A stretch of DNA of 64,000 bases, taken from positions 18,052 to 82,051 of the forward strand of contig JAJZXS010000035.1 of the NCBI GenBank assembly GCA_021806295.1, written 5' to 3'. Shown in pieces: positions 1,744-64,000 of this stretch; positions within the stretch are counted from its first letter, which is position 1; each line of letters begins with the position of its first letter. The notes beneath the pieces were generated by a model. The model did no database searches. It saw only the letters and a program-made list of their open reading frames with translations, and had not been told where the DNA came from. The stretch is from Thermoplasmata archaeon. Its GTDB lineage: Archaea > Thermoplasmatota > Thermoplasmata > Thermoplasmatales > Thermoplasmataceae. Made by a program: the position numbers and the translations under genes.

Positions 1744-2961
1744 TTAAATTGTTGTCTTTCCAGTTTTCTTTACCTTATGCCACACACGCTTTGCACCTGT
1801 GATTTCCAGGAACATTGTATATATAGATATCAGCGAATTTATGGTAAGGTATACATAAATCAATGGCAGATAAATTGCATTCTGCTTTTTCTTGATAAGT
1901 ACAAGGATGAAAGCGGCAGCGTATATTATCAGAGATATAACTATAAGGGATATAAAATAGGTTCTCATTGAATGCACGAACGGGTTATAAAAGTTCAGCA
2001 GTGATATGTACATCCATCCGAAAAACAGTATGCCTGAAAATGTCGGTGCAAGTAAGATCATCAGGGCATCCAAATCTGCGAATCTGCTCAGTTTCTTTTT
2101 TGAATGAATAAAAACCTGATGATACCCTCTAAGCCACCTTGTCCTCTGCTTAAAGTATTCTGAATACGATGCAGGTGTCTCCTGAAGTACCTTGGCACTG
2201 CTAAGGTATGCAGACCTGTAGCGGGAATTTGATATCCTCAGTGAGCTTTCCAGGTCTTCTGTGAGGAACTTATCATCCCAGCCACCTATGTTTTTTATTA
2301 CATGCCTCTTAAAATACTGGTTTGAACCTGCAACAGGGACGAATAGATTTAGGTGTGTTCTTCCTATAAGGGTGGCCTTTACAAGTATCTCATCTATTAC
2401 TGCAAGCCTTGTGAATATATTTTCCTCCCTATTTATATAGGAATTGTATCCCTGCAGAACATCCACATTGAAGTAATTCATCCCATAAACGGCGTTTTCA
2501 AGTGTGTTTCTCAGCAGCATGGTGTCTGCATCATAGGTTGCTATGACTTCTCCTCTTGATTTTTCGAAGCAGAAGTTGAGCGCCGAAGCCTTGCTCTTTC
2601 CATCTGGCCTGTTGAATACCTTTACCCTGCTATCCTTATATTCGAATTCCCTGGCTATTTTATATGTATTGTCGCTGGAATTATCAACAACCACGAATAG
2701 TTCAAAGTTCGTATAGGATTGATTAAGAATGGATTCTATGGTTCTCGATATAACAGTTTCTTCATTCTTGGCCGGGACAATTATGCTTACGAGAGGCTTA
2801 TACATCTTGAACCCTGAAAACTGCACCCCATCCAAACTTGAAAAATCTATATCGTATTTTGTAAATTCCTTATACCCGTAAAACAGTATCGGGAACTGGT
2901 AAATAACATAAACGAGACCTATAGCAACAAGTGCAAGGCCAATAGCCTGAAGTATATCCAT
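1744..2961 (-). CDS. Membrane-bound family 2 glycosyltransferase
   Basis: GT2 (GT-A fold) enzyme that likely builds a polysaccharide or glycolipid at the cytoplasmic face of the membrane. One N-terminal hydrophobic helix (about residues 5-30) precedes the catalytic domain, which shows VSIIVPAKNEE, a DNSSDNT nucleotide-binding turn, the metal-binding YDADT, an ED dyad and the QRTRWLRG (Q/R-x-x-R-W) motif of processive synthases. Three or four C-terminal membrane helices follow. Architecture matches cellulose/hyaluronan-synthase-like and N-acetylglucosaminyl transferases; the sugar is unknown. The next gene on the strand is a lipid headgroup transferase, which fits an envelope role. Confidence 0.87.
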   Translation of the reverse strand: MDILQAIGLALVAIGLVYVIYQFPILFYGYKEFTKYDIDFSSLDGVQFSGFKMYKPLVSIIVPAKNEETVISRTIESILNQSYTNFELFVVVDNSSDNTYKIAREFEYKDSRVKVFNRPDGKSKASALNFCFEKSRGEVIATYDADTMLLRNTLENAVYGMNYFNVDVLQGYNSYINREENIFTRLAVIDEILVKATLIGRTHLNLFVPVAGSNQYFKRHVIKNIGGWDDKFLTEDLESSLRISNSRYRSAYLSSAKVLQETPASYSEYFKQRTRWLRGYHQVFIHSKKKLSRFADLDALMILLAPTFSGILFFGWMYISLLNFYNPFVHSMRTYFISLIVISLIIYAAAFILVLIKKKQNAIYLPLIYVYLTINSLISIYTMFLEITGAKRVWHKVKKTGKTTI

Positions 2962-3067: not shown

Positions 3068-3856
3068 ATGGTTCCAAGGGTTATGACTGTTGCATCCACA
3101 GATTCCGGTGGGGGAGCAGGTGTTATGGCTGATTTAAAAACTTTTACAGCAATGAAGGTGTTTGGAACAGCAGTGATCGTTTCACTTACTGCACAGAACA
3201 GTGTTACAGTAAAATCTATTTATGAACTTCCCGTGTCATTCATTAATGACCAGTTCGATGCAGTAATGGAAGATATTGGTACTGATTCTGCCAAGACAGG
3301 CATGCTCTATTCAGAGGAGATCATATCGGCGGTCACAGAAAAATTTCAGCAGTATAATGTAAATAACATTGTTGTAGACCCCGTGATGATCTCCAAAACC
3401 AATGCAAGATTATTGAAAGAGGATGCGGTTTCCACCATGGTGAATAAACTCATGAAAATTGCTACACTGGTAACGCCTAACATACCAGAAAGCGAGGTCA
3501 TTTCATCTATTAAGATTGATTCTGTAATGGATGCAAGGGTTGCAGCAAAGAAAATATATGAGATGACAGGTGCTGCAGTTCTGGTCAAGGGAGGGCATTC
3601 TGGTGGAAGTATATCCACAGATATACTTTATGATGGGCATGAGTACAGTGAATTTTCCGGTACAAGGATTGATACCAGGAATACACACGGCACAGGCGAT
3701 ACCCTGTCTGCCTCTATAGCATCCGGCCTGGCATCGGGCATGACACTGCATAAATCAATTTCAGAGGCAAGAAAATATATAGAAGGAGCAATCGAGAATT
3801 CATTTCCCATGGGTAAGGGCTATGGGGCACTTTCACATTTCTGGGCGATAAAATGA
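3068..3856 (+). CDS. thiD: Hydroxymethylpyrimidine/phosphomethylpyrimidine kinase
   Basis: Phosphorylates HMP and HMP-phosphate to HMP-diphosphate, the pyrimidine half of thiamine. A ribokinase-fold protein of 262 aa, the usual length for ThiD without a fused ThiN domain. It begins with the ThiD motif AST-DSGGGAGVMADLKTF, has the DPVM strand near residue 101, the VKGGH strand near residue 177, and the catalytic anion hole TGDT near residues 215-218. The last bases overlap the next gene as ATGA, so translation is probably coupled through the thiD-AIRS-like-thiE set. Confidence 0.93.
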   Translation: MVPRVMTVASTDSGGGAGVMADLKTFTAMKVFGTAVIVSLTAQNSVTVKSIYELPVSFINDQFDAVMEDIGTDSAKTGMLYSEEIISAVTEKFQQYNVNNIVVDPVMISKTNARLLKEDAVSTMVNKLMKIATLVTPNIPESEVISSIKIDSVMDARVAAKKIYEMTGAAVLVKGGHSGGSISTDILYDGHEYSEFSGTRIDTRNTHGTGDTLSASIASGLASGMTLHKSISEARKYIEGAIENSFPMGKGYGALSHFWAIK

Positions 3857-4884
3857 TAGGGAAGATATCAAGAAAATTTTTTGAAGAAAACATAATAAAC
3901 AGGATTGGAGCTGTGAGGAAAGATGTTACAGTACCACCACGCAATGGCGTCGATGTAGGTATTATTGCAATTAATGGAAGCTACATGGCAGTAACCACAG
4001 ACCCTCTTTACATTGACAGGTCTTTCGGATTTAAAAAAGCGGCTTGGTTTGCATTTCACATACTTGCATCTGACCTTTTTACATCAGGAATCAGGGCCAG
4101 CTATATGAGTATAGACCTGAATCTGCCTGAAGAAATTACAGACGAACAGTTCAACGAAATATGGGATGTTATACATGGTGAATGCGAAAAATACGGCATT
4201 GAAGTGGTTACAGGCCATACTGCCAGATACGCCGGAGTTTCATTTCCCATGGTAGGTGGCGTTACACTGATGGGGGTAGGTGACAAATACATAACAACAG
4301 AGAATGCCTCCCCTGGAGATGTAATTATAATGGCAAGAAGCTGCGGACTTGAGGCCTCCATCATACTTGCATATACATTTCCAGAATATGTAAGGGAAAA
4401 ACTGGGAAATAATACACTGAAGGCTATTCAGAATAAATTTTATACAATGACCTGCGTGCCTGAGGAACTAATGGCTATAGATTATGGGATAGGTGACAGG
4501 ATAACATCAATGCACGATGCCACAGAGGGTGGATTGCTGAATTCTGTTTACGAAATTGGCTATGCTTCCGGCAATGGGGTCATGATAAAATATAACGGCA
4601 TTATTATTGATAATGATATTGCTGCTATTTGCTCGCTTTTCAATATAAATCCAATGAGGTCCATAAGCGAGGGGACATTACTTCTCACCGTTAAGCCAGA
4701 ATATGCAAATGAATTTACAGAGATGCTCAGGAAAAATGGGGTCAATGCCAGTATAATAGGAGAGGTTACAGAAAAGGCCAGGGGAATGAAATTGGTCCAA
4801 AATGGTAAGGAATCAGAAATAAATCCTGAGGAAGACCAGCTATGGGGAGCCGTTTCCGATGGCATAAGGAGGGGATTAAAATGA
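3853..4884 (+). CDS. AIR-synthase/HypE/ThiL-superfamily protein in thi operon
   Basis: Belongs to the PurM/SelD/HypE/ThiL ATP-binding superfamily. Visible landmarks are TTDPLYID near residue 41 (substrate/Mg-binding strand), a GHTARY segment near residue 117 and HDATEGGLLN near residue 215 (the typical ATP-domain Asp/Glu-Gly-Gly turn). It ends without the C-terminal cysteine that HypE carbamoylates, and no other hyp genes are nearby, so a hydrogenase-maturation role is unlikely. A separate, clear ThiL lies at 58446. Sitting between thiD and thiE with ATGA overlaps on both sides, it probably acts in or near thiamine metabolism; the reaction is unknown. Confidence 0.75.
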   Translation: MIGKISRKFFEENIINRIGAVRKDVTVPPRNGVDVGIIAINGSYMAVTTDPLYIDRSFGFKKAAWFAFHILASDLFTSGIRASYMSIDLNLPEEITDEQFNEIWDVIHGECEKYGIEVVTGHTARYAGVSFPMVGGVTLMGVGDKYITTENASPGDVIIMARSCGLEASIILAYTFPEYVREKLGNNTLKAIQNKFYTMTCVPEELMAIDYGIGDRITSMHDATEGGLLNSVYEIGYASGNGVMIKYNGIIIDNDIAAICSLFNINPMRSISEGTLLLTVKPEYANEFTEMLRKNGVNASIIGEVTEKARGMKLVQNGKESEINPEEDQLWGAVSDGIRRGLK

Positions 4885-25850: not shown

Positions 25851-25870
25851 TCCGGGACAATTCTTATAAT

Positions 25871-25947
25871 GTCGTAGGGGGAGCTCAGAGCTGAGAGGAT
25901 AGGGATCGACCCCATGAACCTGATCCGGGCAATGCCGGCGGAGGGAG
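25871..25947 (+). promoter_or_regulatory. TPP riboswitch (THI element)
   Basis: Contains the invariant blocks in order: GGGG of P2 (25877-25880), CTGAGA (25891-25896), ACCCC closing P2 (25909-25913), TGAACCTGATC (25915-25925), CCGG-gcaatg-CCGG of P5 (25926-25939) and GCGGAGGGA (25938-25946). P3 is minimal (AGCT/AGCT). The 3' end GGAGGGA also serves as the Shine-Dalgarno for the ATG at 25951, so TPP binding should block translation. A normal P1 stem is not apparent. Confidence 0.93.
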
Positions 25948-25950
25948 AAA

Positions 25951-27165
25951 ATGGAATATGATTTGGAAAGCAACAGGAAGATTGCACAGAGTATAGCAAC
26001 ATCACCATGGAATGGCAGGCACTGGATAATTTTTTTTACGGTATCTGTATCATTTTTGATGTGGGGAGTTACACTAAGCATAGCACCTCTTATAACAACC
26101 TGGTATTTTGTTCCTGCCTTTGCATACTATCCGATTATTGGTGCTGCACCGGCAGGACTCCTGACAGGAAACATTGTTATGGGAATAATATCTGATAGGA
26201 CTGGAAGGAGAAGAAGCTACCTCATAACTCTGTTTTTGACTGTAGCGGGACTTGCGGGCATAGGCTTCACATATAATTATGTCGCCCTGATTGCATTTGT
26301 GTTTATAGCGGAATTCGGGCTCGGTGGTGATGAAACCGTATCACTTTCAGTGATGTCGGAATATTTTCCATCACGATACAGAGGAACCGCAATAGTGGAA
26401 TCCTCAAATATGGCCAACATAGGAATAACATTGATGGCCGGTATCTTTTTACTGCTTTCGAGTTCCATTTTTGTCCAGAAAATTGCACTTGTATCCATTG
26501 CAATGATAGGAGGGGCAATATCCCTGTTCGCAAGGCATAGAATAAAGGAAAGCATTTTATGGGAAAATAGAAAAAATATTTATCGAGCACAATTCCATTT
26601 CAGGGGTGCAATGAAATTTATTGCCCTATCTCTGATGGGCATAGCCATAATCGTGGGGTTTGCATTTTCAGACCTTGTGCTTGGACCATTTCATTTCCCG
26701 GAGTATACAGACCTGATTATATTTTTTTCTGTGCTGGCCGAATCGATTACAGGCGTGTTGGGTGGGTTTATTATTGGAAGATCAGGCAGGAAGATCATAT
26801 CCATGATAGGATTTTCCGGTCTTCTTGGATCGTGGATAGTGCTTTTATTGTTCTTTAATGATGTAATATCTAACCTATACCTATTATTGGCCATGCTTGC
26901 TATTAGCTCAGTTTTCGGTGAAATTGCATGGGCATCCAGAGAGCTCCTTGAACCAGAAAATTTTACCAGCCGGTACAGGGGAAGGGGTGTTGGCAGTGTG
27001 CGACTCACAGGTTATACTCTGTATATAGCATTTATATTTATTCTTGCCAGTGCTTCCATTGATCTATACGCCTGGTTTATTCTTATAGTTTATGTGGCAG
27101 GATTTGCCGGGGGTATGCTGTATTTATTGTACGGACTTGAAACTAAGGATTCCTATGTGATTTGA
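25951..27165 (+). CDS. MFS transporter under TPP-riboswitch control, likely thiamine-related uptake
   Basis: 404-aa, 12-helix major facilitator with GIISDRTGRRRSY after helix 2 and ESSNMANIGITLM in the middle; a GRSGRK loop marks the second half. The upstream TPP riboswitch strongly implies that the cargo is thiamine or a precursor such as HMP. MFS proteins behind THI elements in Thermoplasma have been predicted as thiamine transporters; here this is inference from regulation. Start four bases after the riboswitch-embedded ribosome site. The 3' end overlaps the convergent gene by 23 bp. Confidence 0.88.
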   Translation: MEYDLESNRKIAQSIATSPWNGRHWIIFFTVSVSFLMWGVTLSIAPLITTWYFVPAFAYYPIIGAAPAGLLTGNIVMGIISDRTGRRRSYLITLFLTVAGLAGIGFTYNYVALIAFVFIAEFGLGGDETVSLSVMSEYFPSRYRGTAIVESSNMANIGITLMAGIFLLLSSSIFVQKIALVSIAMIGGAISLFARHRIKESILWENRKNIYRAQFHFRGAMKFIALSLMGIAIIVGFAFSDLVLGPFHFPEYTDLIIFFSVLAESITGVLGGFIIGRSGRKIISMIGFSGLLGSWIVLLLFFNDVISNLYLLLAMLAISSVFGEIAWASRELLEPENFTSRYRGRGVGSVRLTGYTLYIAFIFILASASIDLYAWFILIVYVAGFAGGMLYLLYGLETKDSYVI

Positions 27166-62089: not shown

Positions 62090-63739
62090 TCATGAAGAGG
62101 CATGAGTCACCGGAGCTATGGTAACCGGGGTGAATTTATATTTCGGTGTTCCAGTTTCATCGTCCAGTTCTGCGTCCACAACATAGTTTATGTCAGCATT
62201 ATGCATATATGAAAATACAACTCCCGGAATCACATCTTCTGTAATTCTTGCTGATATTTCAAGCTGCCCTGCCCGGGATTTCAAAAGCACCATGGACCCG
62301 TCAGTCACACCATATTTTTTTGCATCAACAGGATTTATCCACAATGTAGGAATATACTTCTGCATCCCTGGAACCCTGTTTATGACCTCGTCTGTGTTAT
62401 ACCTTGTAACAGTTCTTCCAGTGGAGAGTATGAGATCACCGCTTTCCTCCTTTGCCACAACAGGAATGAATTTTGCCTTTCCATTGGGAAGTGAGAACTT
62501 TTCACTGTACAGATGAAGTTCCCCATGTGGATATCTTGAATTTTTGGAATAATCCTTTACATCATTGATATCTACCCCGGAATATATTTTAGAAACTTTT
62601 TTCATTTCTTCGAAGTTTGCCTCCGGAGAGGTTTCAAAAGTAAAACCTGCCTTTTTGGCAATTCTTGCAATAATTTCACCGTCAGGTAAAGCTTCACCGG
62701 GAGGGTCTACTGCCTTGAATCTCCATTTTACAAGCCTGTCAAGGCTGGTAACTGAGCCACTCTTTTCTGCCCATGCCGCAGCCGGCAACACTATATGGGC
62801 GTAATCTGTATTCTCTGTCATGAATATGTCCTGGACAACAACCAGTTCCAGTGATTTAAGAAATTTTTCTATTCTAGCCTTATCCGGCAGGCTTCTTACA
62901 GGATTGTACCCCATGAGAAACAGCGCCTTTATCTTTCCATCACCTCCATAAAATGCCTCCGGTATGTTTGTCCCCTTGCAAACAGGTGGCTTGAATCCCC
63001 ATACTTTAGATAATTCATCGCTATTTGCCTCATTCAATGGCCCGTTCGGGAATGTATCCGGTTTTATCAGGTCACCGGAACTTTGAACGTTTGTCTGCCC
63101 CCTATAAACTATAATTCCAGTCCCCTCCCTCCCTATGTTACCGGTTAACAGCACAAGGTCTATATAGGATTTTATACCCTTCGTACCTGTTGACTGCGTC
63201 AAACCAAGGCCCCATGAAAAAATGGTCTTTCCACCAGAAACAAGGGTGGCAAATTGCTTTATGGTTTCTTCTGGGATTCCTGTTTTTTCCTCTGCAAGTT
63301 CAAGAGTATAGGATGAAACTGTGACCTTATAGGATTCAAAATCGTCCGTCCTTGCATTTATAAAATCATTGTTGACAAGGTTGTTCTGTATGAGGTAGTT
63401 CCCAACTGCATTGATAAGGAAGATATCAGTGCGGGGTTTTATCCTGATATGGACATCTGCAAAAACCTCTGTTCTGGTGGTTCTCGGGTCTATTACTATG
63501 ATTCTGGCACCATTTTGCTTTGCCTCGACAAAATACTGTGATAGCACCGGATGGCTATCTGTAATGGATTCTCCAGCGATAACGATTACATCAGCTTTTG
63601 GAATTTCAGTTACGGATGTTGCACCTGCTCCTATTCCGACCATTTCCTTGAGTGCCTTAGCTGATAGATCATGGCAAACCCTGGCACATGAATCCACATT
63701 ATTTGTGCCCAGCACCCTTCCAAGTTTCTGGAAAAGGTT
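62090..63739 (-). pseudogene. fdhA: Formate dehydrogenase alpha subunit (molybdopterin oxidoreductase), 5'-truncated
   Basis: About 549 codons matching FdhF/FdhA from NLFQKLGRVLGTNNVDSCARVCHD onward. The molybdenum-ligand position is Cys (VCHD) rather than selenocysteine, and the pterin-binding segments (IDPRTTRTEVFADVHI, FLMGYNPVRSLPD, HIVLPAAAWAEKSGSVTS) and C-terminal cap are intact. Homology begins immediately after an in-frame TAA at 63742-63740; the N-terminal 4Fe-4S domain and first molybdopterin region (roughly 130 residues in FdhF) are absent. A GTG at 63715 could start translation, but the product would lack the cluster, so I treat it as a fragment. Confidence 0.7.
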
Positions 63740-63742
63740 TTA

Positions 63743-63832
63743 TAGCTGTAATTATAGTATTAACAGGTAATAACATTCTGTATGGCAATATTCCGGTTTA
63801 GAAATTAGAAATCATGAAAAACCTTATTTAGC
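63743..63832. other. Non-coding gap between truncated fdhA and the structured element
   Basis: No frame here continues fdhA. AT-rich, with a T-tract reading leftwards (complement of 63819-63829) that could end a minus-strand transcript. Confidence 0.4.
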
Positions 63833-64000
63833 CTCAGCTATATGACGATATAGCTGTGAGAATCGGAGGCGGTTGTTATGCAACTTGACCTTAGAGGCCG
63901 CTTTATAGAATAGCCGCCCTTCGACTCGATTTCTTACCTTATTAATATCTAATAAGGTGAATAGGAGTTTGTCGAGTCTACGATTCTAACTCTCACAGAA
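63833..64000. other. Highly structured element at right edge (IS605-type end/omegaRNA or other ncRNA)
   Basis: Nested complementarity over 168 bp: a hairpin with 11-12 bp stem and GACG loop (63833-63860); a long-range stem CTGTGAG/AATCG (63854-63865) with CGATTCT (63981-63987) and CTCACAG (63992-63998); GGCGG (63868-63872) with CCGCC (63914-63918); GTTG/CAAC (63872-63884); GACTCGA/TCGAGTC (63923-63929 with 63972-63978) enclosing ACCTTATT/AATAAGGT (63936-63943 with 63951-63958). No open frame. The terminal hairpin with CGTC loop on the minus strand resembles IS200/IS605 right ends, with tnpB expected beyond base 64000. Identity unproven. Confidence 0.5.

What the first reader, a model, noticed from the sequence alone, without database searches (positions are those of the whole stretch)
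63833..64000. Dense nested stem structures at the right edge
At least six complementary stems pack into 168 bp with no open frame. The CTGTGAG arm (63854-63860) can pair either with the local hairpin or with CTCACAG at 63992-63998, two mutually exclusive folds. A minus-strand IS200/IS605 right end with its omegaRNA is the simplest reading; an unrelated structured RNA or regulatory switch is also possible.
Basis: partly seen in the sequence, partly recalled or inferred. Interest (0 to 1): 0.55.

Follow-up and report, generated by a model that had tools for sequence, protein, structure and literature searches.

The report
Mirror-image bridge RNA of archaeal transposon
The folded stretch at the window edge is the start of a jumping gene (an IS110 insertion sequence) in an acid-loving archaeon; it encodes a predicted 'bridge RNA' that tells the jumping gene where to insert, and in this lineage its guides and the element's ends are arranged as a mirror image of the textbook IS110 case.

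Summary
In detail: ten 7-bp stems against one expected, and folding z = -5.2. It is not an IS200/IS605 end. The window ends where its contig ends. The last 127 nt recur at the start of another contig, which runs on into a + strand IS110-family (DEDD/Transposase_20) recombinase; a second copy elsewhere is complete. Window 63807-64000 is the left end of such an element and encodes a predicted bridge RNA: 5' hairpin, variable target-binding loop, conserved donor-binding loop. Base-pair covariation supports the fold. Donor guides match the element's own ends, with six co-varying pairs. Target guides match flanking DNA far above shuffles (left 94/165 vs 53; right 74/126 vs 41; both P<1e-5). The RNA model hits 39 of 117 genomes of the order.

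New here: this clade has an IS110-type transposase and upstream RNA, but IS1111-type ends (11-bp subterminal repeats, 7/3-bp extensions), reversed guide order and an AG core. Its sister clade in the same archaea has the canonical order, a CT core and 3/7 extensions: a mirror image. I infer that the ends were inverted relative to the RNA+transposase cassette, with unchanged chemistry. Expression and activity are untested; the window copy's own target match is poor.

The parts
63807..63813 (+). Left extension of the element (AGAAATC, 7 bp); its first two bases AG are the core dinucleotide
   Evidence: Left boundary shared by about 28 copies with different flanks; AG follows the right end in nearly all intact copies
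63814..63824 (+). Subterminal inverted repeat ATGAAAAACCT; partner AGGTTTTTCAT at the right end in C21, C28 and relatives
63835..63856 (+). Bridge RNA 5' hairpin CAGCUAUAUGACGAUAUAGCUG
   Evidence: fold; 6 of 9 pairs with compensatory changes
63859..63865 (+). 5' arm of the stem that encloses both loops (AGAATCG)
   Evidence: pairs with 63981-63987; 2 of 6 counted pairs with compensatory changes
63868..63918 (+). Target-binding loop hairpin GGCGG...CCGCC, variable among copies
   Evidence: 6 of 9 stem pairs with compensatory changes; guide-flank matches
63875..63885 (+). Right target guide GUUAUGCAACU, predicts right target AGTTGCATAAC
   Evidence: RTG-RT test over 18 copies; the C23 copy with the same guide is flanked by AGTTGCATAAT
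63901..63908 (+). Left target guide CUUUAUAG, predicts left target CTTTATAG
   Evidence: LTG-LT test over 33 copies; this copy's own match is poor (1 of the scored positions)
63923..63978 (+). Donor-binding loop hairpin GACUCGA...UCGAGUC, constant among copies
63928..63934 (+). Right donor guide GAUUUCU = reverse complement of the element's own left end AGAAATC
   Evidence: guide and left end co-vary across relatives
63961..63967 (+). Left donor guide AUAGGAG = element's own right end ATAGG plus core AG
63981..63987 (+). 3' arm of the enclosing stem (CGATTCT)
63992..63998 (+). CTCACAG at the 3' end of the predicted RNA, invariant or nearly so in the genus
62090..63715 (-). Neighbour: molybdopterin oxidoreductase (formate dehydrogenase alpha-like) fragment lacking its N-terminal part, about 70-90 bp from the element's left end; not part of the element

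Best explanation
Window 63807-64000 is the left end of an IS110-family insertion sequence, read on the + strand. It encodes a bridge RNA upstream of a DEDD/Ser recombinase whose gene continues on another contig. In the inferred mechanism the recombinase binds the RNA. The donor-binding loop pairs with the joined ends of the excised circle (ATAGG-AG-AAATC). The target-binding loop pairs with a short genomic site either side of a two-base core. Strands are then exchanged at that core. In this clade the RNA's 5' loop strands pair with the top right strand and its 3' strands with the bottom left strand, and the core is AG. That is the mirror image of IS621 and of a sister clade in the same archaea, and is best explained by an ancestral inversion of the element's ends relative to the RNA+recombinase cassette. 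Shown by sequence: the element, its boundaries in relatives, the fold with covariation, and both kinds of guide match. Inferred: expression, binding, circle formation, and the inversion as the historical event. The confidence given is for the bridge-RNA reading; I put the inversion reading at about 0.6.
For: Recombinase: PF01548 and PF02371; NF033542 'IS110 family RNA-guided transposase' 239.8 bits against a cut-off of 140; IS621 and ISCro4 are the only PDB relatives found. Boundaries from many copies. Fold: 93.6% of cells paired, 16 of 39 pairs with compensatory changes, 0/500 shuffles as high, sliding collapses it. Donor guides match both ends and co-vary. Target guides: LTG 94/165 vs 52.9+-5.9, RTG 74/126 vs 40.8+-5.6, both P<1e-5, reversed-strand controls null; hold-out copies LTG 25/55 vs 17.9, P=0.015. 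Model hits in 39 of 117 genomes of the order. Mirror arrangement; both clades monophyletic.
Against: No RNA or transposition data. The genome is a draft in 49 contigs, and the join of C6 to C21 rests on a 127-nt overlap typical of assembly k-mers at a branch. The window copy's left guide fits its left flank poorly, and C21's right flank does not fit the guide at C21's start, so C6 and C21 may be different or recombined copies. Several copies are truncated or decayed. Copies are related, so the permutation P values are somewhat optimistic. In the sister clade only the right guide is significant (P=0.003); the left is not (P=0.20; 7 copies).
Confidence: 0.9

Rival explanations
1. Right end of a minus-strand IS200/IS605 element with its omegaRNA.
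For: Insertion-sequence end, multi-copy, structured; TnpB-like sequence near two copies.
Against: The element's own gene is an IS110 recombinase on the + strand. TnpB sequence lies beyond the right end as target DNA: C12 holds TTTTACAAATC-AA-TTTACCAGAAAG without the element, C28 holds the two halves either side of it. The loops match the IS110 ends.
Confidence: 0.01
2. Cis-regulatory RNA or switch controlling a neighbouring gene, with two exclusive folds.
For: CTGTGAG can pair in two ways and CTCACAG is conserved.
Against: The two pairings share only 3 nt; no Rfam family matches; the variable loop tracks insertion flanks, which regulation does not predict.
Confidence: 0.02
3. A dead, truncated left end: same family, but this copy makes no working RNA.
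For: At least four of the genome's left-end copies (C18, C20, C23, C38) are truncated or cut by contig ends or other insertions; contig C6 ends here; the window copy's own target match is poor.
Against: The window copy's RNA is complete and among the best model scores (179.9 bits), and a contig starting with the same 127 nt carries an intact recombinase.
Confidence: 0.3
4. The reversed guide order is a true change in mechanism (different strand cleavage order), not an inversion of ends.
For: Siddiquee et al. (PMC11187229) state that mechanics may differ between IS110 and IS1111 because the order is reversed.
Against: Everything flips together: AG is the reverse complement of CT, 7/3 extensions mirror 3/7, and the left end of one clade aligns with the reverse complement of the right end of the other (score 14 against 6-8), while the RNA keeps its guides on the same loop strands.
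Confidence: 0.15

Closest known systems
IS621 and IS110-group bridge RNA (Durrant et al. 2024, PMC11208160; Hiraizumi et al. 2024, PMC11208158)
   Same: Upstream non-coding end; 5' stem-loop, variable target loop, conserved donor loop; DEDD+Ser recombinase; two-base core included in the guides
   Different: Guides on opposite loop strands; AG instead of CT core; 11-bp subterminal repeats; longer recombinase (387 aa against 328 for the IS621 chain)
IS1111-group seekRNA elements such as ISEc11 (Siddiquee et al. 2024, PMC11187229)
   Same: Subterminal repeats of 11 bp or more with 7-bp left and 3-bp right extensions; top-strand complement 5' of bottom-strand complement
   Different: RNA upstream rather than downstream of the gene; transposase falls outside the ISEc11/IS4321 branch
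Sister IS110 clade in the same archaeal order (L043, L046, L050, L118, L120, L121, L128)
   Same: Upstream RNA with the same loops and similar subterminal repeats; about 39-43% identical recombinase
   Different: CT core, 3/7 extensions, canonical guide order: the mirror image

Membership tests
IS110 family (broad) | DEDD (PF01548) plus Transposase_20 (PF02371) recombinase with catalytic residues | tested here: met
   D9, E54, D92, D95 and the SSG motif at 258-260 read from the sequence
[quoted passage not shown]
IS110 family (broad) | RNA expressed, bound by the recombinase, required for movement through a circular intermediate | not testable with these tools
   needs experiments
IS110 group (as against IS1111) | Long non-coding region upstream of the transposase gene | tested here: met
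IS110 group (as against IS1111) | 5' loop strands pair with the bottom strand, 3' strands with the top; CT core | tested here: not met
   opposite order and AG core
IS1111 group | Subterminal inverted repeats of 11-13 bp with 7-bp left and 3-bp right extensions | tested here: met
IS1111 group | Top-strand complement precedes bottom-strand complement in the RNA | tested here: met
IS1111 group | Non-coding region downstream of the transposase gene | tested here: not met
   upstream
IS1111 group | Transposase in the IS1111 branch, 330-350 aa | tested here: not met
   387 aa; outside the ISEc11/IS4321 branch, though deep branches are long and few references were used
IS200/IS605 | Own tnpA(Y1) or tnpB inside the element | tested here: not met
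   only an IS110 recombinase between the ends

The most novel reading that the evidence does not exclude
Bridge-RNA transposons exist in two mirror-image forms that arise when the element's ends invert relative to the RNA+recombinase cassette (the subterminal inverted repeats offer a route). This Thermoplasmatales clade, IS1111-like at its ends but IS110-like in RNA position and recombinase, is the link that shows IS110 and IS1111 use one reaction. In addition, the left donor guide inside the RNA gene, identical to the right end, can act as a stand-in right end and give about 160-bp mini-elements such as C23.
Probability: 0.5. Interest if true: 0.72.

Novelty: new variant of a known kind. Interest (0 to 1): 0.58.

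Why it matters
The two published groups of RNA-guided DEDD transposons differ in guide order, core and end structure, and one discovery paper says that a shared mechanism cannot be assumed. A clade that combines the ends and guide order of one group with the RNA position and recombinase of the other, beside a sister clade in mirror image, suggests the same chemistry with inverted ends and makes that testable. It also gives many natural archaeal target/guide pairs and a covariance model where Rfam returned no match.

Tried and rejected
Rfam: only a tRNA and a TPP riboswitch in the window, nothing in C21 or C28. Protein scan of named genomes: only two loci, a Thermoplasmata MAG and Acidiplasma aeolicum. 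An empty-site proof for C23 was only partial: homology with G005 and G008 begins exactly at the core, but left flanks do not align convincingly and the right flank is itself a repeat. A first left-guide register for the sister clade was off by one; corrected, it is still not significant with 7 copies. RNA transcribed from the - strand was considered and rejected: loop order (5' hairpin, target loop, donor loop) and guide polarity fit only the + strand. Apparent 3-bp register shifts at the right ends of L084 and L097 (CATAGGAGG) were left unexplained. IS4321 ends did not give a clear core.

Full report
Observation. The stretch folds far better than shuffles on either strand, + strand better, and holds ten perfect 7-bp stems against one expected. 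The proposed two-state switch is weak: the two pairings share only CTG and differ by 2-3 kcal/mol.

What it belongs to. The window is the end of contig C6. The last 127 nt are repeated exactly at the start of contig C21, which continues into a 387-aa + strand ORF. That ORF matches PF01548 and PF02371 and NCBIfam 'IS110 family RNA-guided transposase', and its only relatives found in the PDB are IS621 and ISCro4. A second complete copy lies on C28, and further left ends on C18, C20, C23 and C38. So the finding is a left end on the + strand. A 127-nt overlap is what an assembler leaves at a branch, so I do not claim that C6 and C21 are one copy. Close relatives of the element are in a Thermoplasmata MAG and in Acidiplasma aeolicum.

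Boundaries. About 28 left ends in the genus have different flanks up to the same point, and right ends end in GGTTTTTCATAGG followed by AG in nearly all intact copies. The element is therefore [AG]AAATC-ATGAAAAACCT ... AGGTTTTTCAT-AGG[AG]: an 11-bp subterminal inverted repeat, 7 bp outside it on the left counting the core, 3 bp on the right. C28 sits in a repeat linked to TnpB-like genes. An uninterrupted relative of that site on C12 reads TTTTACAAATC-AA-TTTACCAGAAAG, and C28's two flanks are its two halves.

The RNA. An alignment of 16 left ends from the genus and family supports a 5' hairpin, an enclosing stem, a first stem-loop that varies and a second that is constant. 93.6% of cells pair, 16 of 39 pairs have compensatory changes (69 cells against 24 in shuffles), and sliding the partners by one to three columns destroys it. 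This is the architecture that Durrant et al. (PMC11208160) describe for bridge RNAs.

Donor guides. The 5' strand of the constant loop, GAUUUCU, is the reverse complement of the left end AGAAATC; the 3' strand, AUAGGAG, equals the right end plus core. When the left end differs in relatives, so does the loop: AAATC/GATTT, AAATT/AATTT, AGGTC/GACCT, ATGTC/GACAT, GTGTC/GACAC and ATATC/GATAT. Some copies do not fit.

Target guides. Across 33 copies the five bases left of the core match the 3' strand of the variable loop at 94 of 165 positions (shuffled 52.9 +- 5.9). Across 18 copies the seven bases right of the core match the reverse complement of the 5' strand at 74 of 126 (40.8 +- 5.6). Neither was reached in 100,000 shuffles, and strand-reversed controls are at chance. 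In copies found later and not used to set the register, the left guide still scores 25 of 55 against 17.9, P = 0.015. Good single cases are L075 (AGGTATTG, 8 of 8) and L122 (AGCCATCAT, 9 of 9). Copies are related, so these P values are optimistic.

The mirror. [quoted passage not shown] Here it is the reverse, which Siddiquee et al. (PMC11187229) report for IS1111, and the ends follow their IS1111 rule. Yet the RNA is upstream and the recombinase falls outside the ISEc11/IS4321 branch. The sister clade in the same archaea, with recombinases about 39-43% identical, also has an upstream RNA, but its core is CT, its extensions are 3/7, and its guides are in the canonical order; its right-guide test is significant (P = 0.003), its left-guide test is not. 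The left end of one clade aligns with the reverse complement of the right end of the other (AGATGTCATGAAAAAAGTT / AGGTGTCATGAAAGAAGTT), while the RNA keeps GACAU or GACAC on the 5' strand and AUAG(A/U)AG on the 3' strand. Inversion of the ends relative to the cassette explains all of these at once; separate changes of order, core and extensions would need several coincidences. ISEc11 shows ends of the same orientation as this clade, with core AA (my reading). IS621 needs T at the second core position, which becomes A at the first in the mirror, as in AG and AA. The inversion itself is inference. Two published exceptions (subterminal repeats in some IS110-type elements; an upstream region in one IS1111 element) are mentioned by Siddiquee et al., so parts of this mixture were known; I found no paper in the library that maps guides in such a hybrid.

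Spread. A covariance model of the RNA finds matches in 39 of 117 genomes and 20 of 33 genera of the order. It matches sister-clade RNAs only weakly (E about 1e-5 to 1e-6), so the strong matches are of this clade.

Limits. There are no expression or activity data. The window copy's left guide fits its flank poorly (1 match among the six positions scored), and its right flank is unknown. C21's right flank fits the guide of L031 (9 of 9) rather than its own, while L031's right flank fits C21's guide at 7 of 9, so copies may have exchanged ends by recombination.

Noticed in passing
L023 (contig C23), about 505-667 on the - strand: A 160-bp mini-element: the left end stops exactly at the left donor guide of its own RNA gene (AATAGG) and is followed by AGTTGCATAA, the right target predicted by its own guide. 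The guide sequence may serve as a false right end; deletion between 9-bp repeats after a full insertion would leave the same scar.
   Followed up: partly
L021 (C21) and L031 (G008:C32): The two copies carry each other's target guides relative to their right flanks (9/9 and 7/9), as if recombination between copies had swapped ends.
   Followed up: partly
L034 about 2710-2760 and L118 about 2190-2240 (reverse and forward strand respectively): A mirror-form and a canonical-form IS110 element lie head to head and share the same core dinucleotide (CATGACAT-CT-ACTATGAAAG).
   Followed up: no
window 62090-63735: Formate dehydrogenase alpha-like gene without its N-terminal part; its homology stops about 70 bp before the IS left end, so the IS alone does not explain the break. 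An uninterrupted paralogue (990-aa frame) is on C15.
   Followed up: partly
window 25867-25963: TPP riboswitch (RF00059, 59.3 bits) in this archaeal genome.
   Followed up: no
L084 and L097 right ends: Right ends read CATAGGAGG instead of CATAGG, and the right target match appears only after a 3-bp shift.
   Followed up: no
L024 about 3839-3863 (C38): A lone 24-bp match to the element's left tip (AAATCATGAAAAACCTTATTTA) on the edge of an unrelated repeat.
   Followed up: no
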